Source: a virus. From it: a stretch of 64,000 nt of DNA. The stretch spans positions 1 to 64,000 of IMG/VR virus record IMGVR_UViG_3300032285_004073; one strand, written 5' to 3'. The notes under the pieces were generated by a model. It made no database searches. It had not been told where the DNA came from and worked only from the letters and a program-made list of their open reading frames with translations. A program made the translations under genes and the position numbers. Of the stretch, positions 15,014 to 26,969 are shown one piece after another (positions within the stretch are counted from its first letter, which is position 1; the number at the start of each line of letters is the position of its first letter).

Positions 15014-15087
15014 GCCCGGTTAGTTTAATGGTAAAACGGTTGATTTGTAATCATCAAACAAGAGTTCGATTCTCTTACTGGGCTCCA
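15014..15087 (+). tRNA. tRNA-Thr (anticodon UGU)
   Basis: GCCCGGT (15014-15020) pairs with ACTGGGC before TCCA; the T arm is AGAG-TTCGATT-CTCT. The anticodon loop TTTGTAA gives UGU (Thr). The anticodon stem has one T-T mismatch, so this is a slightly weakened or alternatively folded stem. CCA is encoded. Confidence 0.85.
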
Positions 15088-15100
15088 TTTTTTGTATTAT

Positions 15101-16102
15101 ATGAAAGCTAAAATTGTTGGTTGTGGTTTATCAGGGATAACATCAGCTATTCTTCTCAAAGAAAGGGGATATGATATAACCATATATGACACTAGAAATC
15201 ATATAGGTGGTAATTGTTATGATAGTAATCTTTGTGGTACATTAGTTCATAATTACGGTCCTCATCTTTTTCATACAAATGACGAAGAAGTATTTAATTT
15301 TTTGAGTCGTTATACTAGTTGGTTTCAATATCTAAACAAACCAAAAGGTAATACAGAACTTGGGTTACTTTCTCTTCCTTATAGCAAAAAGACTGTAGAA
15401 GAACTTGGAAGAGAATTGTCACAGGAAGAAATTGTTGATGTAATCTTTAGAGATTATTCAGAAAAACAATGGGGTGTTAAATTTGAAGAAATTCCTAAAT
15501 CTATTACTAATCGAGTACCTAAAACTAAAGATTGTGAGGACCCTACTTGGTATGAAGGAGAGAAATATCAATGTCTTCCTAAGGATGGTTATACGAAGAT
15601 GATGGAGCGAATGTTGGAAGGTATTGAAGTTGTTCTTGGTTGTGACTGTGATTATTGGAGGTATGCAGAGGAAGCAGATTTAACCATTTATACAGGTAAG
15701 ATTGATGAATATTTTGATTTTTGTTATGGAAGGCTTCCTTATAGAAGTTTGGATTTTAAACATAAAACAAGTAATACAAAACTAGATTGTGGAATTATAA
15801 ATCAGAATAACAAAACTAATAAATTTACTAGAATTTATGATCATAGCTATTTTAATTATGAACATAAAGGACCTACAATAATAACTCAGGAATATCCAAA
15901 AGATTGTAGTGATAATGATATTCCTTTCTATCCGGTTCCTTGGGGTGAAGGATTACAAATATACGCAAAATATAAAGAACTTGCAGATAAGGAAAAAAAT
16001 GTCATCTTTTTAGGGAGATTAGCAACTTATACCTATTTGGATATGTGGATGTCGGTCAAACAAGCTATATTAAAAATTAGTAGTAATATACCCCAAGTTT
16101 AA
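15101..16102 (+). CDS. glf: UDP-galactopyranose mutase
   Basis: This flavoenzyme interconverts UDP-galactopyranose and UDP-galactofuranose. The 333-residue protein starts at ATG 15101 with the FAD-binding motif KIVGCGLSGITSAILLKERG (about 4-23), then RNHIGGNCYD (about 33-42) and YGPHLFHT (about 54-61). Further on are YSEKQWGVKFEEIPKSI and a C-terminal FLGRLATYTYLDM flavin-contact motif. All are hallmarks of the Glf family. Length is slightly short of bacterial enzymes (about 365-390). A phage copy suggests modification of host surface sugars or of virion glycans. Confidence 0.88.
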   Translation: MKAKIVGCGLSGITSAILLKERGYDITIYDTRNHIGGNCYDSNLCGTLVHNYGPHLFHTNDEEVFNFLSRYTSWFQYLNKPKGNTELGLLSLPYSKKTVEELGRELSQEEIVDVIFRDYSEKQWGVKFEEIPKSITNRVPKTKDCEDPTWYEGEKYQCLPKDGYTKMMERMLEGIEVVLGCDCDYWRYAEEADLTIYTGKIDEYFDFCYGRLPYRSLDFKHKTSNTKLDCGIINQNNKTNKFTRIYDHSYFNYEHKGPTIITQEYPKDCSDNDIPFYPVPWGEGLQIYAKYKELADKEKNVIFLGRLATYTYLDMWMSVKQAILKISSNIPQV

Positions 16103-16104
16103 AC

Positions 16105-16110
16105 TAAGTA
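16105..16110 (+). promoter_or_regulatory. Late-type TAAGTA box before a small GTG-start gene
   Basis: TAAGTA ending 5 nt before GTG 16116. Confidence 0.35.
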
Positions 16111-16115
16111 TATAT

Positions 16116-16235
16116 GTGCTTGATCCTCTAGAAGCTGCTATGACGGGGGTTTTGCTTTTTCCTTTTGTAATTTGTTATATTTTTTTTAAATATCTCTACA
16201 AATTTTTTCTTGCTATCTTGTATAAAATAACATAA
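16116..16235 (+). CDS. Possible 39-aa membrane protein (GTG start)
   Basis: The frame from GTG 16116 to TAA 16233 encodes MLDPLEAAMTGVLLFPFVIC and then a second hydrophobic, aromatic stretch. A TAAGTA box lies exactly 5 nt upstream. The product would be a tiny inner-membrane protein. Support is the promoter-start geometry and hydrophobic profile only. Its 3' end overlaps the promoter of the tRNA cluster. Confidence 0.45.
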   Translation: MLDPLEAAMTGVLLFPFVICYIFFKYLYKFFLAILYKIT

Positions 16236-16238
16236 TAT
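16210..16238 (+). promoter_or_regulatory. Sigma70-like promoter for the tRNA cluster
   Basis: TTGCTA (16210-16215), 17-nt spacer, TAATAT (16233-16238), ending 10 nt before tRNA-Glu. Confidence 0.65.
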
Positions 16239-16248
16239 ACCTATAGAT

Positions 16249-16320
16249 GTCGCCATCGTCTAAAGGTTAGGACACGCGGTTTTCATCCGTGTAATAGGGG
16301 TTCAATTCCCCTTGGCGATG
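16249..16320 (+). tRNA. tRNA-Glu (anticodon UUC)
   Basis: Acceptor GTCGCCA pairs with TGGCGAT (G-U at the first pair). The anticodon stem CGCGG/CCGTG encloses TTTTCAT, anticodon UUC. T arm AGGGG-TTCAATT-CCCCT. CCA is not encoded, so host CCA addition is required. Confidence 0.93.
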
Positions 16321-16334
16321 CTAAATATTTTAAA

Positions 16335-16421
16335 GGAAGTGTACTCAAGCGGTTTACGAGAGCTGTTTACTAAACAGCCGAGCCTTTATCGGCTCCGTGG
16401 GTTCGAATCCCACCACTTCCT
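16335..16421 (+). tRNA. tRNA-Ser (class II, anticodon reads ACU)
   Basis: GGAAGTG pairs with CACTTCC; the long variable arm GAGCC/GGCTC marks a class II tRNA. The anticodon stem GCTGT/ACAGC is fully paired around TTACTAA, giving anticodon ACU, cognate for the Ser codon AGU. Adenosine at position 34 is unusual because GCU is the normal Ser anticodon. CCA is not encoded. Confidence 0.85.
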
Positions 16422-16426
16422 TATAA

Positions 16427-16501
16427 GCACGGAAAGCTAATCGGTTAGGCAAGGGTCTGCAAAACCCTTTATGGTGAGTTCGACTCTCACTCCGTGCTCC
16501 A
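16427..16501 (+). tRNA. tRNA-Cys (anticodon GCA)
   Basis: GCACGGA/TCCGTGC acceptor, anticodon loop CTGCAAA (GCA), T arm with TTCGACT, encoded TCCA end. Confidence 0.93.
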
Positions 16502-16507
16502 TTTTAA

Positions 16508-16595
16508 GGAGGGATGTCTGAGCGGTTTAAAGAGTTAGTCTTGAAAACTAAAGTACTGAAAAGTACCGTGGGTTCGAATCCCACTCCCTCTTCCA
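16508..16595 (+). tRNA. tRNA-Ser (anticodon UGA)
   Basis: GGAGGGA/TCCCTCT acceptor (first pair G-U), stem TTAGT/ACTAA with loop CTTGAAA (UGA), variable arm GTACT...AGTAC, T arm GTGGG-TTCGAAT-CCCAC, encoded CCA. Confidence 0.93.
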
Positions 16596-16601
16596 TTTTT
16601 C

Positions 16602-16629
16602 TTGATAAATACTAAAAATCTTATATTAT
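16602..16629 (+). promoter_or_regulatory. Sigma70-like promoter for tRNA-Pro
   Basis: TTGATA (16602-16607), 16-nt spacer, TATTAT (16624-16629), ending 7 nt before the tRNA. Confidence 0.65.
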
Positions 16630-16636
16630 ACATTTA

Positions 16637-16709
16637 CGGGATGTAGCCCAATGGTTAAGGCGCCTGGTTTGGGACCAGGAGATTCCGAGTTCGAGTCTCG
16701 GCATCCCGA
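16637..16709 (+). tRNA. tRNA-Pro (anticodon UGG)
   Basis: CGGGATG/CATCCCG acceptor with the C1-G72 pair typical of tRNA-Pro, stem CCTGG/CCAGG, loop TTTGGGA (UGG), T arm loop TTCGAGT. CCA is not encoded. Confidence 0.93.
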
Positions 16710-16740
16710 TTTTTTCTTATTTAAGCAGACTGTGGTTGGG

Positions 16741-16746
16741 TAAATA
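16741..16746 (+). promoter_or_regulatory. Late-type TAAATA box for the 16755 gene
   Basis: GGTAAATATATG context; box ends 8 nt before the ATG. Confidence 0.5.
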
Positions 16747-16754
16747 TATGTACC

Positions 16755-16991
16755 ATGGAAGTTACTATACAAGAAGCACAAGTAATCACTATTCAGGAAC
16801 CTATAGTGATAGAGGATGTAAGAGATTTATTTACCAGACAGCGTATTATTGCTAAAATCAAAGGATTGCCTCGTTATATCACCCTTTGGGATGGACCTGA
16901 AGAATATGAAGCTGCTGGAAATTGGACAAATGATTCTGCTTTAATTAGAGCCAAAGAAGTACTTTCTGTTTCACCTATTGTCTGGGGTTAA
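16755..16991 (+). CDS. Small conserved phage protein
   Basis: The 78-residue protein begins MEVTIQEAQVITIQEP and contains IIAKIKGLPRYITLWDGPEEYE. It resembles small beta-rich proteins that in other phages lie among structural genes. A late-type box upstream suggests late expression. It is followed 5 nt later by another small late-type gene. Function unknown. Confidence 0.7.
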   Translation: MEVTIQEAQVITIQEPIVIEDVRDLFTRQRIIAKIKGLPRYITLWDGPEEYEAAGNWTNDSALIRAKEVLSVSPIVWG

Positions 16992-16996
16992 TTTTT

Positions 16997-17350
16997 ATGA
17001 CACTTTCTCCTATTATATCTTCCAATCCAATTAATTCTAATAGTGGATGGACTAATTCTTGGATAACAGTATCTAACGATCAAAGTCGTACATTATATGC
17101 TCAAGCCACCTATAATGTTAACAATCTAGGTAGTAATGGGATCACGGTAATTGCCGGTACTAATCAAGTTGATGGAAATTTTAACGGAATACAAATGATA
17201 ACTTCAACTGTATTTGCTGGACTTACATCATCTGGTACCACAGGCATAAGTGCTATAACAGTTCCTACATTTCCAGCGGGATTTGTTTTAAATGGTAGTT
17301 ACAAATCAATAAAATTAACCAGCGGACAGGTTATTGCTTATAATACTTGA
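16997..17350 (+). CDS. Hypothetical protein, likely virion surface/decoration type
   Basis: The 117-residue protein is rich in Ser, Thr, Asn, Gly and Ile with few charges (for example TLSPIISSNPINSNSGW), typical of beta-sandwich virion proteins. It follows the 16755 gene with a 5-nt gap, in the same likely late transcript. No named family is recognised; the structural role is inference from composition. Confidence 0.6.
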   Translation: MTLSPIISSNPINSNSGWTNSWITVSNDQSRTLYAQATYNVNNLGSNGITVIAGTNQVDGNFNGIQMITSTVFAGLTSSGTTGISAITVPTFPAGFVLNGSYKSIKLTSGQVIAYNT

Positions 17351-17374
17351 TTAATTTCAGTCATTGGTTATAAT
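17347..17374 (+). promoter_or_regulatory. Sigma70-like promoter for the purA homologue
   Basis: TTGATT (17347-17352), 16-nt spacer, TATAAT (17369-17374), 6 nt before the ATG; overlaps the upstream stop. Confidence 0.75.
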
Positions 17375-17380
17375 AAGCCT

Positions 17381-18379
17381 ATGATTGAATATGTAGATAT
17401 CATTGTAGGTCTTGCTTGGGGTGACGAGGGTAAGGGTAAGATCTCAAGTGCATTGGCAAAAGATTATGATATGGTTTGTCGATGGAATGGTGGACCAAAT
17501 GCTGGTCATACTGTTTATCTTAATGATAAAAAGTATAAAACCCATCTCATTCCTTCTGGAGTATTTCATAATAAACCTTCAATTATCGGTCCTAACTGCG
17601 TAGTCAATATTAATAAATTTCATGAGGAGATAGAATATCTCAAAGAAAATGGTTTTGATACATCATTAGTTAAAATACATCCACACGTTCATGTAATCAC
17701 AAAAGATCATATTAAATTCGATGTAGATTATCTTAAACCAAAGCTAGGAACTACTGGTCAGGGTATTGCTCCGTGTTATGCGGCAAAGGCAAATAGAGTC
17801 GGATTACAAATTAAAGATTCTTCGATTGATCCGATATATCATTGGGATGGAAATCTTAAAGGAAAAATTTTATGTGAAGGTGCTCAAAGTATTTGGCTCG
17901 ATATTAACTATGGCGATTACCCATATGTGACAAGTTCTGAAACCTTTCCTCATAATGCTTGCTCACTTGGATTTTCTCCAAAGAAGATTCGTGATATTAT
18001 TGGTGTGGCAAAGATTTATGATACTAAGAGTGGCGTAGATCCGTTATTCCCCGAATCTTTATGGGATGATCCAATTCTAAACAAGATTATTGAAATCGGT
18101 GGCGAGGTTGGAACCACAACAGGTAGAAAGAGACTTGTTAATTGGCTTAATGTTAGAAAGCTAGTTGATGCAATTAATCTCTCAGGTGTAACTAAACTCA
18201 TTATCAACAAGTGTGATGTGTTAGAAAAAGTCGGAGAATTCAGATACAACTTTGATAACAATGGGTTTGTATCAATTGGTCTTAATCCGTTTAAGAAAAG
18301 TTTAATAAAAGATATAATTGAAAATACAGAATTAGAGGAAAACAACATTGTATTTTCTGGAGACAAGACTAATATATAA
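17381..18379 (+). CDS. Adenylosuccinate synthetase family protein (PurA-like)
   Basis: PurA joins IMP and aspartate using GTP to form adenylosuccinate. The 332-residue protein has GLAWGDEGKGK (about 10-20, phosphate loop with the catalytic Asp), GGPNAGHTVY (about 36-45, catalytic His), GTTGQGIAPCYAAKANRVGL (about 127-146), CEGAQSIWLDINYGDYPYVTSS (about 168-189) and TTTGRKRLVNWLN (about 247-259). It is shorter than bacterial PurA (about 430), like archaeal PurA and phage PurZ forms. Retention of GDEGKG favours PurA-type rather than PurZ (2-aminoadenine) chemistry, as I recall that PurZ replaces this Asp. Confidence 0.85.
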   Translation: MIEYVDIIVGLAWGDEGKGKISSALAKDYDMVCRWNGGPNAGHTVYLNDKKYKTHLIPSGVFHNKPSIIGPNCVVNINKFHEEIEYLKENGFDTSLVKIHPHVHVITKDHIKFDVDYLKPKLGTTGQGIAPCYAAKANRVGLQIKDSSIDPIYHWDGNLKGKILCEGAQSIWLDINYGDYPYVTSSETFPHNACSLGFSPKKIRDIIGVAKIYDTKSGVDPLFPESLWDDPILNKIIEIGGEVGTTTGRKRLVNWLNVRKLVDAINLSGVTKLIINKCDVLEKVGEFRYNFDNNGFVSIGLNPFKKSLIKDIIENTELEENNIVFSGDKTNI

Positions 18380-18387
18380 TCAGCTAA

Positions 18388-18459
18388 TACGGTGTAGATC
18401 AATGGTAGATCCCCAGAATTTGGATCTGGTAGTTGTAGGTTCGAGTCCTACCGCCGTAG
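18388..18459 (+). tRNA. tRNA-Gln (anticodon UUG)
   Basis: TACGGTG pairs with CGCCGTA; stem CCAGA/TCTGG with loop ATTTGGA (UUG); T arm GTAGG-TTCGAGT-CCTAC; discriminator G. CCA is not encoded. Confidence 0.9.
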
Positions 18460-18469
18460 CTGTTTTATC

Positions 18470-18498
18470 TTGACATAAAAATAAAAATATTATATTAT
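18470..18498 (+). promoter_or_regulatory. Near-consensus sigma70 promoter for the 18508 gene
   Basis: TTGACA (18470-18475), 17-nt spacer, TATTAT (18493-18498), 9 nt to the ATG. Confidence 0.75.
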
Positions 18499-18507
18499 TA
18501 ATAAATC

Positions 18508-18864
18508 ATGAGCCAAGAAAATATTAAAACAATTAGATTAATGGAATCATATATTACCTATGAGAATCATGGTGATATAAATCTTAATCTTAACTATTTC
18601 CCAGAATTACAAGGCAAGACTAATAGTGAGATACAAGATTGGTTAAATGCTAATAGTGATAATCTTTATGTGGATAGCAATAACGGTGAAATTCGCAAAG
18701 ATCGTTATTACATTTATACACAAGAAGAATATGATGACATGGCAGTAAACGGAGAAGATCCGGAAATTGACGAAGATGTCATTGAACTTTTAGAATATTG
18801 GAATAATAGTGAGGTTATCTGGGATAAAATTAAGTGTGAGGAAAAAACCTTATACGTCCAATAA
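18508..18864 (+). CDS. Acidic hypothetical protein
   Basis: The 118-residue protein is strongly acidic in its C-terminal half (DPEIDEDVIELLEYW) and rich in Asn and Tyr. It has no recognised domain. Small acidic proteins from strong early promoters in phages are sometimes inhibitors of host or DNA-binding proteins, but nothing here proves that. It lies between tRNA-Gln and tRNA-Tyr. Confidence 0.7.
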   Translation: MSQENIKTIRLMESYITYENHGDINLNLNYFPELQGKTNSEIQDWLNANSDNLYVDSNNGEIRKDRYYIYTQEEYDDMAVNGEDPEIDEDVIELLEYWNNSEVIWDKIKCEEKTLYVQ

Positions 18865-18870
18865 TTTTAA

Positions 18871-18957
18871 GGGTAGGTACCGAAGCTGGACAAACGGGGA
18901 GCTCTGTAAAAGCTTTGTCATTCGACTTCGAAGGTTCGAATCCTTCTCTACCCACCA
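18871..18957 (+). tRNA. tRNA-Tyr (anticodon GUA)
   Basis: GGGTAGG/TCTACCC acceptor, loop CTGTAAA (GUA), long variable arm as in bacterial tRNA-Tyr, T arm GAAGG-TTCGAAT-CCTTC, encoded ACCA. Confidence 0.93.
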
Positions 18958-18963
18958 TTTAAA

Positions 18964-19629
18964 ATGAAAATTAAAACGAAACTTACAAAGTTATGTGATG
19001 GTATATACCTTTGTGAAATTGATAATGCTTATGATTTAGCAATGACTTTTTGTCGAGCACAGGAATTCTATGAATCCCCTTTTGAAGAAATAAGAAATAA
19101 GAATTTTACCATGATGCAATTTCAAAGACTTTATTCTTTGAAACGAAATGGTTATTTTTCTTATCCTGAAGATTGGGCAGGATTCAATATTCCTGGTAGT
19201 ATTTTAGAAAAATTCTACAAAGGTGATTGGATAACTAATGATTGGAATGAATATGACGGGGTTTTTAAAAAACTCATTAATCATATAGGTAATGACAAAC
19301 CTTTTTATTTAATTGGAGCGGTGAGAGGAGATAAAGATACTATAGATCATGAATTGTGTCATGCTTTTTATAATTTAAAAGAAAATTATAAAAAAGAAGT
19401 GGACAAACTTATTAGTAAAATCCCTAAAAAAACTTTTAATAAAATGAGAAAGGCCCTCAAAGATACTGGTTATTGCAATAAAGTAATAAAAGATGAGATT
19501 CAGGCATATCTTTCAAGCAGTGATTGTTCTTTTTTTGATGATTATAATTATTGGGAAGAAAATCAAAAGATAGGGAAAGTCTTTGCGAATCATTTTAATA
19601 AACACATTGCCCTAAATATAAAGAAATGA
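18964..19629 (+). CDS. HExxH-motif putative zinc metallopeptidase
   Basis: The 221-residue protein has DTIDHELCHAFYNL (about 122-135), in which HELCH is the HExxH zinc-peptidase motif. A downstream acidic segment (KDEIQAYLSSSD, about 178-189) could supply the third ligand. Related phage proteins of this length are usually left unnamed. It starts 6 nt after tRNA-Tyr and overlaps the next gene by 4 nt. Protease activity is inferred from the motif only. Confidence 0.65.
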   Translation: MKIKTKLTKLCDGIYLCEIDNAYDLAMTFCRAQEFYESPFEEIRNKNFTMMQFQRLYSLKRNGYFSYPEDWAGFNIPGSILEKFYKGDWITNDWNEYDGVFKKLINHIGNDKPFYLIGAVRGDKDTIDHELCHAFYNLKENYKKEVDKLISKIPKKTFNKMRKALKDTGYCNKVIKDEIQAYLSSSDCSFFDDYNYWEENQKIGKVFANHFNKHIALNIKK

Positions 19630-20792
19630 ATTTTAAAGATTTTTATAGTAAAGAAGAAGGGCATATGATTCTTCTCAAAGATATTGAAGTTAGTGAATCT
19701 CTTGCTTATCATTTAAAAAACAAATTAACATTGGCAGAAAATGTTTTTAGAATTTATTCTGAAGAATATTTTTCTCTAATTAAAGAAGCTCGCAATCTTT
19801 ATAACCAAGATGCCTTGGCTTTGAATGATGAAGATTTAGAATTGATTGAATCTTCCTTAGGTGAAAAAGCTATTTTTGAAGGAAGGGAAGTTTATTTGGA
19901 TGCACCAATTACTATTAATGAAGATTTATTCAATGAGGGATTATCCATTATGCCATCTAATTCTGTAGATACACAAATATTTGTTGACATGGATGGAGTG
20001 TTATGTGACTTGTATAAAGTTGTTGCAGAAAAAATGGGTAAAAAATCATATAAAGATTTAACTCAAAAAGAGTATGCTCAATTTTTTGCAGAAAATGCAA
20101 ATGATATGGACAAAATATTTGCTGAATTACCAAAATATGAATCCACAGATTTTTTAGTTAAAATGCTTAAAGAAGTAGCTGGTGGTTATAAGGTGTGTTC
20201 AGCTAATCTTAAAAATCACGATTCTAGCAAAGTAATAAAAGGCAAAAATGATTGGTTGGATAAAAAGTTAAGTGATCAACCAGATCAACGTATTTTTATA
20301 AGAGAAAAATACAAATATGCTACTACAAATAATAGACCAAATATTTTAATTGATGATTGGAGTGAGAATATTAAAAATTGGATTAATGCAGGTGGTATTG
20401 GTATTCATTATTGTGCTAATGAAGATGATTTAGACGTTGTTATAGAAGGATTGAATATCGCGAGAGAAATTTTAAAGGGTGAACAAACAGAGGGTATGTT
20501 TACAGAAGCCACTAAAAACGGTAAAAAAGTAAAACTTAATCACCCCTTTAGAACACCAGGTGGTCCTAAGAAATTTGCAGTTTACGTGAAAACTCCTAAA
20601 GGTACTATAAAAAAAGTTACTTTCGGTGACCCTAATATGAAGGTTCGTAATGCTAATAAAGCAAGAGCAAAGTCTTTTAGAGCAAGACATAAATGTTCAC
20701 AAAAGAAAGACAAAACAACAGCAGGATATTGGAGCTGTAATATTTCTAGATATCGCAAAGCTCTAGGATTAAAATCATCGAGGGCTTGGTAA
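19626..20792 (+). CDS. HAD 5'-nucleotidase-like protein fused to a basic RARH...YWSC domain
   Basis: The 388-residue protein has three parts. Residues 1-115 start MNFKDFYSKEE, a capsid-targeting-like leader. Residues about 118-285 form a HAD domain with IFVDMDGVLCDLYKV (nucleophile Asp), VCSANLKN and NILIDDWSENIKNW, as in 5'(3')-deoxyribonucleotidases. The last 95 residues (NHPFRTPGGPKKFAVYVKT ... VTFGDPNMKVR ... RARHKC ... GYWSC) form a basic domain I recall as recurring in T4-like aquatic phages. The leader and basic tail suggest a DNA-associated, possibly head-packaged protein. Confidence 0.75.
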   Translation: MNFKDFYSKEEGHMILLKDIEVSESLAYHLKNKLTLAENVFRIYSEEYFSLIKEARNLYNQDALALNDEDLELIESSLGEKAIFEGREVYLDAPITINEDLFNEGLSIMPSNSVDTQIFVDMDGVLCDLYKVVAEKMGKKSYKDLTQKEYAQFFAENANDMDKIFAELPKYESTDFLVKMLKEVAGGYKVCSANLKNHDSSKVIKGKNDWLDKKLSDQPDQRIFIREKYKYATTNNRPNILIDDWSENIKNWINAGGIGIHYCANEDDLDVVIEGLNIAREILKGEQTEGMFTEATKNGKKVKLNHPFRTPGGPKKFAVYVKTPKGTIKKVTFGDPNMKVRNANKARAKSFRARHKCSQKKDKTTAGYWSCNISRYRKALGLKSSRAW

Positions 20793-21055
20793 TGGATCTT
20801 CCTTTTCATCAGGAAAAAATATCAGATAAACAAATTATTAGATATTTTTCGGAATTTGTAGATGAAGAAGATTTAAAATGGCATTTTGATGCTGAAGATA
20901 GAATTGTTGAAGCTTTAGAACCTACAGATTGGCTCATCCAATTTGATAATAAACTGCCTCAACCCATCGAAGGAGTAATAAAAATCCCGGCAGGTGTTTA
21001 CCACCGAGTGATAAAAGGAAAAAAAGATTTTAAAATTAATATTAAAATGTCTTGA
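20792..21055 (+). CDS. Small cupin-like hypothetical protein
   Basis: ATG 20792 overlaps the previous stop (TAATG) and is preferred to an in-frame TTG. The 87-residue product contains LKWHFDAEDRIVEALEPTDWLIQFDNKLP and IKIPAGVYHRVIKG. The D-R-x-V, W-x-x-Q-F-D and IP-x-x-x-x-HR-x-IKG elements fit a small cupin-like family common in T4-like phages. Function unknown. Confidence 0.7.
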   Translation: MDLPFHQEKISDKQIIRYFSEFVDEEDLKWHFDAEDRIVEALEPTDWLIQFDNKLPQPIEGVIKIPAGVYHRVIKGKKDFKINIKMS

Positions 21056-21088
21056 TCTTTTATATATGAAGAATTAATATAATCAGAG

Positions 21089-21164
21089 GCACGAGTAGCT
21101 CAGTGGTAGTAGCGCTTCCTTTACACGGAAGATGTCGGGGGTTCGAATCCCTCCTCGTGTACCA
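21089..21164 (+). tRNA. tRNA-Val (anticodon UAC)
   Basis: GCACGAG/CTCGTGT acceptor (G-U first pair), stem CTTCC/GGAAG with loop TTTACAC (UAC), T arm GGGGG-TTCGAAT-CCCTC, encoded ACCA. A TATAAT at 21078-21083 lies just upstream. Confidence 0.93.
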
Positions 21165-21170
21165 TTTTCT

Positions 21171-21503
21171 ATGCACCACACTTTAACAGATATATTATTT
21201 TTTATTGGAAATATTACTATAATTTCCTTTATAACCACAGCAATTTATAGGTTTAATAATCCAAGTAAAAAAACATTAATATCACGTGGCTGTCGTTTTG
21301 TGAAATTTCAAATGTCACAATCTAGGAAGAGATGTTATTATACAATGCCTAGACAATTGAGATCAGATCTTAAATTAAACGTAAGGGGTATAAATAAACA
21401 CAATTGTAGAGAAATAACAGATAAAGTTTTACAAAAATTAGTAGAAGATAATGTTTTAGAATTACAACCCCATGAAAGTGTTGATGTTTATTTTAAGGTT
21501 TAG
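21171..21503 (+). CDS. Hypothetical protein with N-terminal membrane helix
   Basis: The start at ATG 21171 follows tRNA-Val; a longer frame would run through the tRNA. The 110-residue protein has a hydrophobic helix at about 5-25 (TDILFFIGNITIISFITTAI) and a basic, Cys-containing soluble part. No family is recognised. It overlaps the next gene by 32 nt. Confidence 0.6.
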   Translation: MHHTLTDILFFIGNITIISFITTAIYRFNNPSKKTLISRGCRFVKFQMSQSRKRCYYTMPRQLRSDLKLNVRGINKHNCREITDKVLQKLVEDNVLELQPHESVDVYFKV

Positions 21504-21720
21504 CCTTTTTTTTATTGCTATATCTTTATATGCAAATGATACTAATTCATTATCCAATATAACAGATTTAAATACATTTTTAAATCAATCACAAAATGTT
21601 TATTATTTAAAAATACATAACGATAAAAATTTAAACATTATTTTAACAGGAGAAACAATTTTTGAATCAAATATTAAAAGAATTGATACACATAGCTGTT
21701 TTAAAATAATTTTTTGGTAA
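21472..21720 (+). CDS. Small secreted protein
   Basis: The 82-residue product begins MKVLMFILRFSLFFIAISLYA followed by ND, a good signal peptide with a likely cleavage after Ala. The remaining 60 residues are polar and contain one Cys. It would act in the periplasm. No homologue is recognised, and the overlap with the preceding gene makes the start slightly uncertain. Confidence 0.55.
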   Translation: MKVLMFILRFSLFFIAISLYANDTNSLSNITDLNTFLNQSQNVYYLKIHNDKNLNIILTGETIFESNIKRIDTHSCFKIIFW

Positions 21721-21724
21721 GTAT

Positions 21725-22255
21725 ATGAAAAAGATGCAAGGAATAGAAAATGTAATTTTTAGCAAAACAGTTCTTTCTGCTAAAATTAAGTCCTTAGGCA
21801 GGTCTATTACTCGTGATTATAAAGACCAAGAATTAACCATTATTAGTTTAATGGCTGGTAGTATCTTATTTACAGCTGATTTAATAAGAGAAATTAACAT
21901 TCCAATTCATTTATATGCTATAACAGTATCAAGTTATAATGGAGAAAAAATAAGCTCAGGAATTTTAAATATTAAAGAATCTTTACCAAATTGTGAAAAT
22001 AAAAATATATTATTAGTAGATGATATTTTAGATTCTGGGTTAACACTTTCTACATTAAAAAATAATATACAAGTTTTGAACCCACTTTCTGTTAAGACTT
22101 GTGTTTTATTGAAAAAAAATATAGCCAGGGATCATACAGTAGAACCAGATTATTATGGATTTGATATAGGAGAGGAATTCGTAGTGGGTTATGGTCTAGA
22201 TTATCAGGGTTTGTATAGAAATGTTCCTTATATAGGGACTTTGCAGGATAAATAA
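21725..22255 (+). CDS. hpt: Hypoxanthine/guanine phosphoribosyltransferase
   Basis: HPRT joins hypoxanthine or guanine with PRPP to give IMP or GMP. The 176-residue protein has the PRPP-binding loop ILLVDDILDSGLTLSTL (about 97-113) and the C-terminal signature PDYYGFDIGEEFVVGYGLDYQG (about 137-158), which contacts the purine. Length is typical for bacterial Hpt. Together with the PurA-like enzyme at 17381 it could route salvaged hypoxanthine toward AMP. Start is ATG 21725 in a TATATG context. Confidence 0.87.
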   Translation: MKKMQGIENVIFSKTVLSAKIKSLGRSITRDYKDQELTIISLMAGSILFTADLIREINIPIHLYAITVSSYNGEKISSGILNIKESLPNCENKNILLVDDILDSGLTLSTLKNNIQVLNPLSVKTCVLLKKNIARDHTVEPDYYGFDIGEEFVVGYGLDYQGLYRNVPYIGTLQDK

Positions 22256-22665: not shown

Positions 22666-23256
22666 ATGAATGCAGATCATTTAAAATGGCAGACGGTTTT
22701 AGTGTTAAACCGTAATTGGCAAGCTATACACGTTAAATCTCCATCAGAAGCCTTGGCTATGATGTTTTCAGATACAGCTACTGGTCTTGATGTATTAGGT
22801 CAGGATAATATGGTTCCTTATAGATGGAATGAATGGGTTAATTTACCTTATGATGAAAATTCTAGTTATATTAAAACTATAAGAGGAAATATTAAAATTC
22901 CTAAAATCATTATTTTAGCCGAATATGATAAAGTACCTCAAAAAAGACCGAAATTTTCATCTAAAGGTATTTGGAATAGAGACGGTGGTATTTGTCAATA
23001 TACTGGTCAAAAATTGACCCCAAATGAAGGTAATATAGATCATGTAATACCAAGATCTCGTGGTGGCAAATCTACTTGGACTAATTGTGTTTTGGTGCAT
23101 AAAGAAGTTAATGCTAAAAAAGCAGATAGATTGCCGCAAGAAGCTGGTTTAAAATTAATAAGACAACCAAAAGAGCCTAATTCATTGCCCTCTACTTTTT
23201 ATATTAAAAACAGACATAAAATTAGAGAATGGGAATTGTTTTTAAAATATGAGTAG
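22666..23256 (+). CDS. HNH endonuclease
   Basis: The 196-residue protein has a C-terminal HNH domain: GGICQYTGQKL (about 107-117), IDHVIPRSRGGKSTWTNCVLV (about 125-145) and KEVNAKKADRLPQEAGLKL. The conserved HxxPxxxGG, the Asn and the final H/N-region residues are present. The N-terminal half (VLVLNRNWQAIHV) is shared with a group of bacterial and phage HNH proteins. It overlaps the dCMP deaminase by 8 nt, so it is probably an integrated gene rather than a recent homing insert. Confidence 0.8.
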   Translation: MNADHLKWQTVLVLNRNWQAIHVKSPSEALAMMFSDTATGLDVLGQDNMVPYRWNEWVNLPYDENSSYIKTIRGNIKIPKIIILAEYDKVPQKRPKFSSKGIWNRDGGICQYTGQKLTPNEGNIDHVIPRSRGGKSTWTNCVLVHKEVNAKKADRLPQEAGLKLIRQPKEPNSLPSTFYIKNRHKIREWELFLKYE

Positions 23257-24274: not shown

Positions 24275-25951
24275 TTATGCTTCACATGATTTACAAGTCA
24301 TAATAGAACGAGCTAAATCTTTAGAAGGATTAGAACTTCTTTGATAATAAAGTGATTTAATACCTTGTTCCCATGCAAAAATATTAAGCTCATTTACTGC
24401 CTTGGGAGATGTTCCTGCTGGTATCATAAGATTTAAACTTTGACCTTGATCAATATACTTTTGACGACCTGCTGCTTGAATAACAATTTCTTTTTGAGAT
24501 GTTTCTGCAAAAGTCTTGAAAACTTCTTTTTCTTCTTCTGTAAGGAAATCTAAATGTTGAACAGATCCTCCATGAATGAGAATGGATTTCCAAGTTTCCT
24601 CGTCATTCTTATCTTTCAATTTAAGTAAATTTTTAAGATAAGGATTTTTATAAGTAAATTTACCTTTTGCTAAATCTTTAACAAAGTAATTTGATTCAAG
24701 AGGTTCAATACTTGGTGATACTTGACCAAGAATGAAAGATGACGATGTAGTAGGAGCAACAGCAAGTGTTGTTGTATTTCTACGATTATAACCCTTAAGC
24801 AATTCTGGTTCCCCAATCAATTCTGAAAGTTCTTTAGTTGCTTTGTCTGCTCTTTCACGGATTGTTTTCCAAATAGTATTATTAAGAAATTTGGCTTCCA
24901 TGGATTCAAATGCAATTAATTTAGATTGAAGAAGTGAATGCCACCCAAGGACACCCAGGCCTAAAGCTCTATGTCTTATAGCAAACTTTCTCGGGGCATC
25001 CATAAAAGGCATGTCTTTGGTTTTATCAATAAATTCTGACATGACAGCATCAAGAAAATAAATCATAGTTTCTACGGCATCAGTGTCTTTCCATTCTTCC
25101 CACTTTTCAAGATTCATAGAAGAAAGATCACATACAAATGATTCATCATCACTATTAGGGAGCATGATTTCTGTGCAAAGATTAGAATGATTAATCTTTA
25201 AATTCTTATCTTTATAAACCTGCGGAGCTTGATTATTGACGTTATCTGTAAAGAAAATATAAGGATATCCAGACTCAAATCTTTTTTTAAGAACTAAACC
25301 CCAAATTCTACGTTTTTCTTTATCCCCATCAATCATGGATTTCATCCACTCATCACTGACTGTAACACCAATAGAAAGATTTTGAATCTCATTGCCCTCT
25401 GAACGAATTTTTAAGAATTCTTCTATGTCCTTATGATCAATAGGAAGATAAGAAGCAAAAGACCCTCTTCGCACGTTTCCTTGAGAAATGACATTCATTA
25501 AACTCTCAAAAAGCTCCATAAAGTGAACTGTTCCTGTAGACTCCCCTCCTGAAGAAATTGGGGTACCTCTACTTCTTAAAGATCCAAAATAAGCAGAGGT
25601 ACCTCCACCACCTTTTGTCATCATGCCCACTTCAGAAACTTTCTCTAGAATACCTTCCATGGTATCTGGAATATGGGAACCAAAACAAGAAATAGGAAGA
25701 CCTCTATTACGACCAAAATTAGACCAGATAGGAGATGCTAGAGAATAAAAACCTCTATGCATATAATCTTCAAACTTTTTTGCAAATTTTGTATCTCCTG
25801 TAAAATCAACCAAGATTTTTTGAGCTGCTTTGGCTATATCTTTGATTCTTTGTTCTGGTGTTTCTCCCTCTAACAAATAACCTCTTTGAAGGAATTTTCT
25901 GGAATCTTTGTTGAGCCAATAAATATCGGAATGCTGCGCTTCGGTAGTCAT
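24275..25951 (-). CDS. nrdA: Ribonucleotide reductase large subunit (class Ia, short)
   Basis: NrdA reduces ribonucleotides to deoxyribonucleotides. The 558-residue protein has PISCFGSHIPD (first redox Cys), KGGGGTSAYFG, SQGNVRRGSFASYLP, HSNLCTEIMLP (the Asn/Cys/Glu radical triad) and a C-terminal CKSCEA thiol pair. The N-terminal ATP cone is missing, so allosteric activity control is probably lost, as in many T4-like marine phages. It is followed downstream by hsp20 and preceded by nrdB. Confidence 0.93.
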   Translation of the reverse strand: MTTEAQHSDIYWLNKDSRKFLQRGYLLEGETPEQRIKDIAKAAQKILVDFTGDTKFAKKFEDYMHRGFYSLASPIWSNFGRNRGLPISCFGSHIPDTMEGILEKVSEVGMMTKGGGGTSAYFGSLRSRGTPISSGGESTGTVHFMELFESLMNVISQGNVRRGSFASYLPIDHKDIEEFLKIRSEGNEIQNLSIGVTVSDEWMKSMIDGDKEKRRIWGLVLKKRFESGYPYIFFTDNVNNQAPQVYKDKNLKINHSNLCTEIMLPNSDDESFVCDLSSMNLEKWEEWKDTDAVETMIYFLDAVMSEFIDKTKDMPFMDAPRKFAIRHRALGLGVLGWHSLLQSKLIAFESMEAKFLNNTIWKTIRERADKATKELSELIGEPELLKGYNRRNTTTLAVAPTTSSSFILGQVSPSIEPLESNYFVKDLAKGKFTYKNPYLKNLLKLKDKNDEETWKSILIHGGSVQHLDFLTEEEKEVFKTFAETSQKEIVIQAAGRQKYIDQGQSLNLMIPAGTSPKAVNELNIFAWEQGIKSLYYQRSSNPSKDLARSIMTCKSCEA

Positions 25952-25997
25952 AAAAATTGATTACTATATCTTATCGAATTACTAATGAATAGCAATC

Positions 25998-26969
25998 TTA
26001 AAATAAGTCTGATTCATCAAATGATTGGTTCTTCTTGGAATATTCAACTGGACGAGAATGGAAAAAATCTGTCATATTGTTTCCGAGTAATTCTTCTTCA
26101 AACCATTTTGTCGATTTGAGAAGCTCATTATTAACTTCAAATGCTTTTCTAAAACCAATTTGAACAAGAGAATCATTAATGCGATTCTTGATAAATTCTT
26201 TTAAGATTCCAGCAGTAAGACCTTCTTCTTGAATTCCGTTTACCATCCAATCAACAATCTTTGCTTCGGATTTGAAAGCTTCACCAGCTTCAAATATAAT
26301 TTTATCTTCTAATTCTGCATCAAAGAGATCTGGATATTCTTGACGAATGGTATTAATAATTTTTATACCAACGAGAGCATGAATATTCTCTTCGTTACGA
26401 GTATACTTTACTTGCTGATCTGTATCTTTAAGAACATTCTTAAATCTTGCGAACCAATTGATTACATAAAATTGTGAGAACAAGCTAACATTCTCAACAA
26501 ATAATGTAAATAAAATCAAAGCATAAAGATACTGTTTTTTAGAATCTTTATAAAAACGATGAGTATATTTACGAAGGTAATTTACACGGCCCTGAATCCA
26601 GTCAAGCTTTAAATTTTGTTCAAAAACTTCTTCAAGACCTAATACAGAAATAAGTCTTTCATAAGCATTATTATGAATGACTTCCACATTCGCCATTACA
26701 TATCCAAGATCCTGTAATGATGGATGTGGAAGATTCTCACCGAGTTTTGCCCAAAAGGTTTTAACCGCAACTTCAATCTGACCAATTGCGGAAAGTGTAC
26801 GTATGATAATTTCTCTTTCTTGATCTGTTAAATTAACTTTAAATTGTTGAATATCTGATTTAAAACTGAATTCTTTATCAGTCCAAAATCCATTGTGCAT
26901 TGCTTCAATGTATTCATCTGTCCAGGTGTAAAGGTTAGGTTTGCGTGAAATTTGTTCGTCGAATATCAT
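25998..26969 (-). CDS. nrdB: Ribonucleotide reductase small subunit
   Basis: NrdB holds the di-iron tyrosyl radical for NrdA. The 323-residue protein contains ANVEVIHNNAYERLI (about 93-107), ENVSLFSQFYVINWFA (about 158-173) and NEENIHALVGIKIIN (about 191-205), which carry the iron ligands Glu/His. Length matches the family. It is 46 nt upstream of nrdA on the same strand. A TAAATA box (26982-26987) lies 12 nt upstream of the ATG. Confidence 0.93.
   Translation of the reverse strand: MIFDEQISRKPNLYTWTDEYIEAMHNGFWTDKEFSFKSDIQQFKVNLTDQEREIIIRTLSAIGQIEVAVKTFWAKLGENLPHPSLQDLGYVMANVEVIHNNAYERLISVLGLEEVFEQNLKLDWIQGRVNYLRKYTHRFYKDSKKQYLYALILFTLFVENVSLFSQFYVINWFARFKNVLKDTDQQVKYTRNEENIHALVGIKIINTIRQEYPDLFDAELEDKIIFEAGEAFKSEAKIVDWMVNGIQEEGLTAGILKEFIKNRINDSLVQIGFRKAFEVNNELLKSTKWFEEELLGNNMTDFFHSRPVEYSKKNQSFDESDLF

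What the first reader, a model, noticed from the sequence alone, without database searches (positions are those of the whole stretch)
17381..22255. Phage purine salvage: HPRT plus PurA-like enzyme
HPRT makes IMP and a PurA-type enzyme makes adenylosuccinate from IMP; only host PurB is then needed to reach AMP. Phage HPRT is uncommon. The short PurA belongs to the family that also gave PurZ, so its substrate deserves a test.
Basis: partly seen in the sequence, partly recalled or inferred. Interest (0 to 1): 0.6.

Follow-up and report, generated by a model that had tools for sequence, protein, structure and literature searches.

The report
Phage HPRT and short adenylosuccinate synthetase
A large AT-rich, T4-type bacteriophage carries two purine enzymes that together would turn hypoxanthine into the direct precursor of AMP; the second belongs to a phage-only branch of PurA that is separate from the enzymes that make the unusual base Z, and its relatives pair it mostly with a GMP-reductase-family enzyme, which suggests phages that shift host purines towards adenine.

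Summary
Confirmed: 17381-18379 encodes a 332-aa PurA-family protein and 21725-22255 a 176-aa HPRT. Both have intact catalytic residues and are under purifying selection. The phage (176.8 kb, 31.6% GC) has a B-family DNA polymerase and RNR genes. Not supported: the link to PurZ. The short PurA keeps the catalytic Asp (65 of 65 relatives; phage PurZ has Ser), roots among long bacterial PurA beside Bacteroidota, and appears to have lost the extra segments independently. It is a phage-only clade: 401 IMG/VR stretches encode relatives, and no fetched cellular homologue exceeds about 39% identity. Of 18 contigs of 80 kb or more carrying this PurA, 14 also carry an IMPDH/GMP-reductase-family gene, two (window included) carry HPRT, two neither, none both; none of 34 records searched has PurB. 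Best reading: phages supply their own IMP and push it to AMP, using host PurB, to feed adenine-rich DNA. Unexpected: six substitutions at aligned substrate-pocket positions are invariant in the phage clade, including Val273 to Ser at a position conserved in all sampled PurA and PurZ. Whether the substrate is IMP or dIMP is therefore open. Activity is inferred, not shown.

The parts
17381..18379 (+). purA: short adenylosuccinate synthetase of a phage-only clade (332 aa)
   Evidence: PF00709 8.6e-80; catalytic residues kept in 65 of 65 phage sequences; AlphaFold2 pLDDT 89.4, pTM 0.89, Foldseek hits to solved PurA from 6.4e-26
21725..22255 (+). hpt: hypoxanthine(-guanine) phosphoribosyltransferase (176 aa)
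   Evidence: TIGR01203 157.9 bits over its cut-off of 150; best PDB match 1r3u, E 1.2e-41; active-site motifs invariant in three phage copies
23249..23674 (+). dCMP deaminase (dCMP to dUMP), pyrimidine counterpart of the proposed G-to-A shift
   Evidence: PF00383 6.8e-18 and phrog_174 9.4e-38; family found in all 18 large PurA contigs
24275..25951 (-). ribonucleotide reductase large subunit (NrdA/NrdE-like), would consume the ADP/GDP produced
   Evidence: TIGR02510 763.8 bits over its cut-off of 602
25998..26969 (-). ribonucleotide reductase small subunit
   Evidence: PF00268 6.7e-45
19626..20792 (+). NT5C-type 5'(3')-deoxyribonucleotidase domain, between purA and hpt; role in the pathway unknown
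   Evidence: PF06941 5.8e-07; phrog_2643 1.2e-21

Best explanation
The phage carries its own two-step route into the adenine branch of purine metabolism. HPRT joins hypoxanthine to PRPP to make IMP. The phage PurA couples IMP with aspartate, using GTP, to make adenylosuccinate. Host PurB then yields AMP, which the phage ribonucleotide reductase and host kinases take to dATP. Relatives mostly use a GMP-reductase-family enzyme (GMP to IMP) in place of HPRT, so the shared logic is 'own IMP source plus own PurA', moving purines from G to A for an AT-rich genome, alongside dCMP deaminase moving C to T. Shown: gene identity, catalytic residues, co-occurrence, absence of PurB. Inferred: activities, direction of flux, benefit.
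For: Family, residue and fold evidence for both enzymes. All 65 phage PurA keep D13, K16, N38, H41, T129, R143, Q224, T239, R303, R305 and also K331 and D333 (E. coli numbering). An IMPDH/GMP-reductase-family gene lies within about 0.5-8.6 kb of purA in 69 of 97 loci. Of the copies in the window's own sub-clade, 3 of 4 tested pass the NCBIfam GMP reductase cut-off of 344 (362, 356, 372; the fourth scores 340). Of 18 contigs of 80 kb or more, 14 have such a gene, 2 have HPRT, 2 neither, none both. The partner enzymes fall into at least three distinct lineages plus HPRT, which suggests repeated recruitment. No PurB in 34 records. Window phage GC 31.6%; loci median 29%. In one phage group purA follows nrdA-nrdB with one ORF between. 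dCMP deaminase in 18 of 18 large contigs.
Against: No activity data. HPRT is known in only three contigs of one sub-clade, may be a single gain, and could serve guanine salvage. The main-clade partner scores and folds closest to IMPDH, which would consume IMP, although it lacks the E. coli Arg401-Tyr402 dyad. GMP reductases occur widely in phages without PurA: 23 of 24 long contigs outside this clade lack it. Not all PurA loci are AT-rich; a few reach 37-45% GC. Host and host GC are unknown.
Confidence: 0.7

Rival explanations
1. The pathway works on deoxynucleotides. dGMP from degraded host DNA is reduced to dIMP by the GMP-reductase-family partner, and the phage PurA, with its altered ribose-side pocket, converts dIMP to the succinyl precursor of dAMP.
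For: Substitutions invariant in 65 of 65 phage PurA at aligned substrate-pocket positions (V273S, R272K, S/T270D, G276D, G225S, R131Q), where V273, R272 and G276 are invariant in sampled cellular PurA, the archaeal PurA, PurZ and PurZ0. Co-occurring deaminase and reductase genes.
Against: R303, the residue reported to balance the 2'-OH of IMP (PMC8342488), is kept in all. HPRT in the window phage makes ribonucleotides. No data that these reductases accept dGMP.
Confidence: 0.12
2. The enzyme is a PurZ-type synthetase that uses dGMP to make 2-aminoadenine (Z) DNA.
For: Short architecture like PurZ; Q at position 131 and P at 37 are shared with most sampled PurZ of the phiVC8/S-2L branch.
Against: Asp13 kept; PurZ model 92 bits against a cut-off of 300; placed among bacterial PurA, clade with PurZ p-AU 0.023; no DatZ, MazZ or DpoZ found, no A-family polymerase, B-family polymerase present.
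Confidence: 0.03
3. HPRT and PurA are unrelated acquisitions. HPRT salvages guanine (or both purines), while PurA independently raises AMP from host IMP.
For: About 3.3 kb apart in a gene- and tRNA-rich region; HPRT in only three PurA contigs; GMP reductases exist widely without PurA.
Against: Both close HPRT relatives found lie on contigs with this PurA; no contig has both HPRT and an IMPDH/GMP-reductase-family gene, as expected of interchangeable IMP sources, though the numbers are small and the three are close relatives.
Confidence: 0.2

Closest known systems
Bacterial adenylosuccinate synthetase PurA (PF00709), Bacteroidota branch
   Same: Catalytic and GTP-recognition residues; fold; tree places the phage clade beside Bacteroidota PurA
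   Different: Lacks the internal segment of about 62 profile positions and the region before the C-terminus; below the NCBIfam purA equivalog cut-offs (259.5 against 402); six substrate-pocket substitutions; at most about 39% identity to fetched cellular sequences
Archaeal short PurA (Pyrococcus horikoshii, PDB 5k7x/2d7u)
   Same: Similar length and missing segments
   Different: Outside the bacterial-plus-phage clade in the tree (100/99), so the shortening appears independent
PurZ / PurZ0 of Z-DNA phages
   Same: Superfamily, short form, phage-borne
   Different: Ser in place of Asp13, separate clade, different accessory genes and polymerase family
Bacterial HPRT (TIGR01203; 1r3u, 2geb)
   Same: Whole-length match and active-site motifs
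   Different: Borne by a phage; close relatives on only two other viral contigs found
Phage GMP reductase (reported in a pelagimyophage group, PMC7029224)
   Same: Same enzyme family as the partner of PurA in relatives
   Different: That report mentions no PurA (no match for 'adenylosuccinate' in its text); most phage GMP reductase contigs tested here lack PurA

Membership tests
PurA (adenylosuccinate synthetase) | Pfam PF00709 over curated cut-off | tested here: met
   268.9 bits against 27
PurA (adenylosuccinate synthetase) | Catalytic Asp13 and His41 and substrate residues K16, N38, T129, R143, Q224, T239, R303, R305 | tested here: met
   65 of 65 phage sequences
PurA (adenylosuccinate synthetase) | NCBIfam purA equivalog cut-offs | tested here: not met
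   259.5 against 402; 237.9 against 395.55; consistent with the two missing segments and divergence. So it is called a PurA-family enzyme that should work like PurA, not an assured equivalog.
PurA (adenylosuccinate synthetase) | Val273 and neighbouring substrate loop | tested here: not met
   V273S, R272K, G276D invariant in the phage clade
PurA (adenylosuccinate synthetase) | GTP-dependent synthesis of adenylosuccinate from IMP | not testable with these tools
   needs enzyme assay
PurZ / PurZ0 | Ser in place of the catalytic Asp (phage members) | tested here: not met
   Asp in 65 of 65; Ser in all 7 PurZ/PurZ0 sampled
PurZ / PurZ0 | Membership of the PurZ clade | tested here: not met
   NF038379 92.3 against 300
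PurZ / PurZ0 | Companion DatZ, MazZ/DUF550 and A-family DpoZ in the genome | tested here: not met
   B-family polymerase instead. The record may be incomplete.
PurZ / PurZ0 | 2-aminoadenine in virion DNA | not testable with these tools
   needs LC-MS
HPRT | TIGR01203 over curated cut-off | tested here: met
   157.9 against 150
HPRT | PRPP loop and purine-binding residues | tested here: met
   DDILDSG, SSY, K131, FVVGY, LD159 and R165 present (correspondence to human HPRT from own knowledge); one conservative change, Glu to Asp, in the PRPP loop
HPRT | Activity with hypoxanthine rather than guanine | not testable with these tools
   needs assay
GMP reductase (partner gene in relatives, not in the window) | NCBIfam GMP reductase cut-off | tested here: inconclusive
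   Met in 3 of 4 sub-clade copies (NF003966); narrowly missed in L058/L209 (387 and 385 against 397); main-clade copies far below all cut-offs

The most novel reading that the evidence does not exclude
A phage-specific PurA clade has been remodelled at the sugar side of its active site to act on dIMP, and with its reductase partner forms a direct dGMP to dAMP conversion route that, together with dCMP deaminase, rewrites the base composition of host-derived nucleotides to match an AT-rich phage genome.
Probability: 0.1. Interest if true: 0.75.

Novelty: new variant of a known kind. Interest (0 to 1): 0.5.

Why it matters
It would show phages actively converting guanine nucleotides to adenine nucleotides, not merely making more of everything, and it identifies a widespread, apparently uncharacterised PurA clade (401 relative-encoding stretches in IMG/VR) that must not be annotated as PurZ. 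The invariant pocket substitutions give a concrete enzymology question, and the association of PurA with several alternative IMP sources is a testable prediction about how phages match nucleotide supply to their own base composition.

Tried and rejected
PurZ identity (rejected by residues, profile, tree and missing companions). Archaeal origin of the short PurA (the tree places it with bacterial long PurA). PurB on the phage or relatives (none in 34 records). An IMPDH/GMP-reductase gene in the window phage (none). A general rule that phage GMP reductase implies PurA (rejected: 1 of 24 long contigs outside the clade; the implication runs the other way). Classifying the main-clade partner by fold gave IMPDH catalytic domains as nearest, so its direction stays unsettled. 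Literature searches found no description of this PurA clade or of the PurA-GMP reductase pairing; the library is open access only. A search for reports of dIMP use by PurA gave nothing useful.

Full report
Observation. The window is the first 64 kb of a 176,807-bp viral record of 31.6% GC. It has a contractile-tail sheath, RNR and a B-family DNA polymerase, so it is a large T4-type phage. ORF 17381-18379 is a PurA-family protein of 332 aa and ORF 21725-22255 an HPRT of 176 aa. Both evolve under purifying selection.

What the PurA is. It matches the Pfam profile in two blocks, 1-147 and 210-334 of 416, so a middle segment and a stretch before the C-terminus are missing relative to E. coli PurA. 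The predicted fold is confident and matches solved PurA structures first (6.4e-26) and PurZ ten orders of magnitude later (1.9e-16). In a 60-protein tree the 21 phage sequences are one group (100/100) on a long stem (2.12), inside bacterial PurA and next to Bacteroidota (100/97); PurZ and PurZ0 form a separate group (100/97) and the archaeal short PurA lies outside the bacterial-plus-phage clade. Forcing the phage clade with PurZ lowers the likelihood by 29 units (p-AU 0.023). The stem is long, so the exact sister group is less certain than the exclusion from PurZ. Short length is therefore most simply an independent loss.

Active site. All 65 phage sequences keep Asp13, Lys16, Asn38, His41, Thr129, Arg143, Gln224, Thr239, Arg303, Arg305, Lys331 and Asp333 (E. 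coli numbering). Published work assigns Ser at position 13 to phage PurZ and Asp to PurA (PMC12884076), and assigns Arg303 to contact with the 2'-oxygen of IMP (PMC8342488). By these criteria the enzyme should use a hypoxanthine nucleotide and, by the kept Asp333, probably GTP. Six substitutions are nevertheless invariant in the phage clade: R131Q, G225S, S/T270D, R272K, V273S, G276D. Position 273 is Val in every sampled cellular, archaeal, PurZ and PurZ0 sequence. I have no structure with ligand, so the effect is unknown.

Distribution. Two scans of IMG/VR with this PurA fetched 64 and 79 loci (partly the same); with the HPRT locus they make 96 viral loci, two of them (L003, L065) on one contig. 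The profile scan found 401 stretches that encode relatives. The best cellular matches are only about 32-39% identical. Cultured-phage records hold nothing above 60% identity; the best is 40% on an uncultured 735-kb phage.

Context. Clustering the proteins of these loci showed an IMPDH/GMP-reductase-family protein (PF00478, 1.3e-62, no CBS domains) in 69 of 97 PurA loci, about 0.5-8.6 kb away. Reciprocally, 42 of 46 contigs with close relatives of that protein carry this PurA; on the other four the fetched stretch shows none. Whole-contig searches then found a different, Bacillus-type GMP reductase in the window's own sub-clade and an E. coli-type one in L056-L058. The window phage, L002 and L003 instead carry HPRT and no PF00478 protein. 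Of 18 contigs of 80 kb or more, 14 have the PF00478 enzyme, two HPRT, two neither, none both. None has PurB. All 18 have a dCMP deaminase, which is common in T4-type phages in any case (own knowledge).

Limits of the association. The HPRT contigs are close relatives and may reflect one gain. Related phages share genes by descent, so counts are not independent; the stronger argument is that at least three distinct partner lineages plus HPRT occur with the same PurA. So PurA is usually accompanied by an IMP source, while an IMP source does not require phage PurA. The main-clade partner lacks the E. coli IMPDH Arg401-Tyr402 dyad but is nearest to IMPDH by score and fold; its direction is not settled.

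Mechanism. Most likely: hypoxanthine to IMP by HPRT, IMP to adenylosuccinate by PurA, then host PurB to AMP, and onward to dATP through RNR (genes at 24275-26969). In relatives the IMP would come from GMP. The common result would be a shift of the purine pool from G to A, which suits genomes with a median of 29% GC in the sampled loci, although a few loci reach 45%. Gene identity, residues and co-occurrence are shown; enzyme activities, flux and benefit are inferred.

Comparison and novelty. PurA, HPRT and phage GMP reductase are known kinds (PMC7029224 reports a GMP reductase in a pelagimyophage group). PMC12884076 counted 481 viral PurA homologues and put 151 sequences in the PurZ group, so viral PurA relatives outside PurZ were already visible in databases. 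I found no characterisation of this clade or of the pairing in the open-access library. I rate it a new variant of a known kind.

Noticed in passing
window 15014-21164: Nine tRNA genes interspersed with the metabolic genes, three of them between purA and hpt.
   Followed up: no
window 19626-20792: NT5C-type deoxyribonucleotidase domain with a further C-terminal domain (phrog_7595) between purA and hpt.
   Followed up: no
window 15092-16102: UDP-galactopyranose mutase-like protein (TIGR00031 268 bits, cut-off 304) next to the tRNA cluster.
   Followed up: no
window 22666-23256: HNH endonuclease whose best NCBIfam match is the HNH region of Cas9d (5.5e-14, far below cut-off); probably an ordinary HNH protein.
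   Followed up: no
L301 (contig of 202,704 bases): A large phage contig outside this clade with a longer PurA-family protein (open frame 454 aa) about 9 kb from a GMP reductase.
   Followed up: partly
L170:6952-8055 and relatives: IMPDH/GMP-reductase-family proteins with an unusual insertion near residues 203-218 and below all curated cut-offs; direction of reaction unknown.
   Followed up: partly
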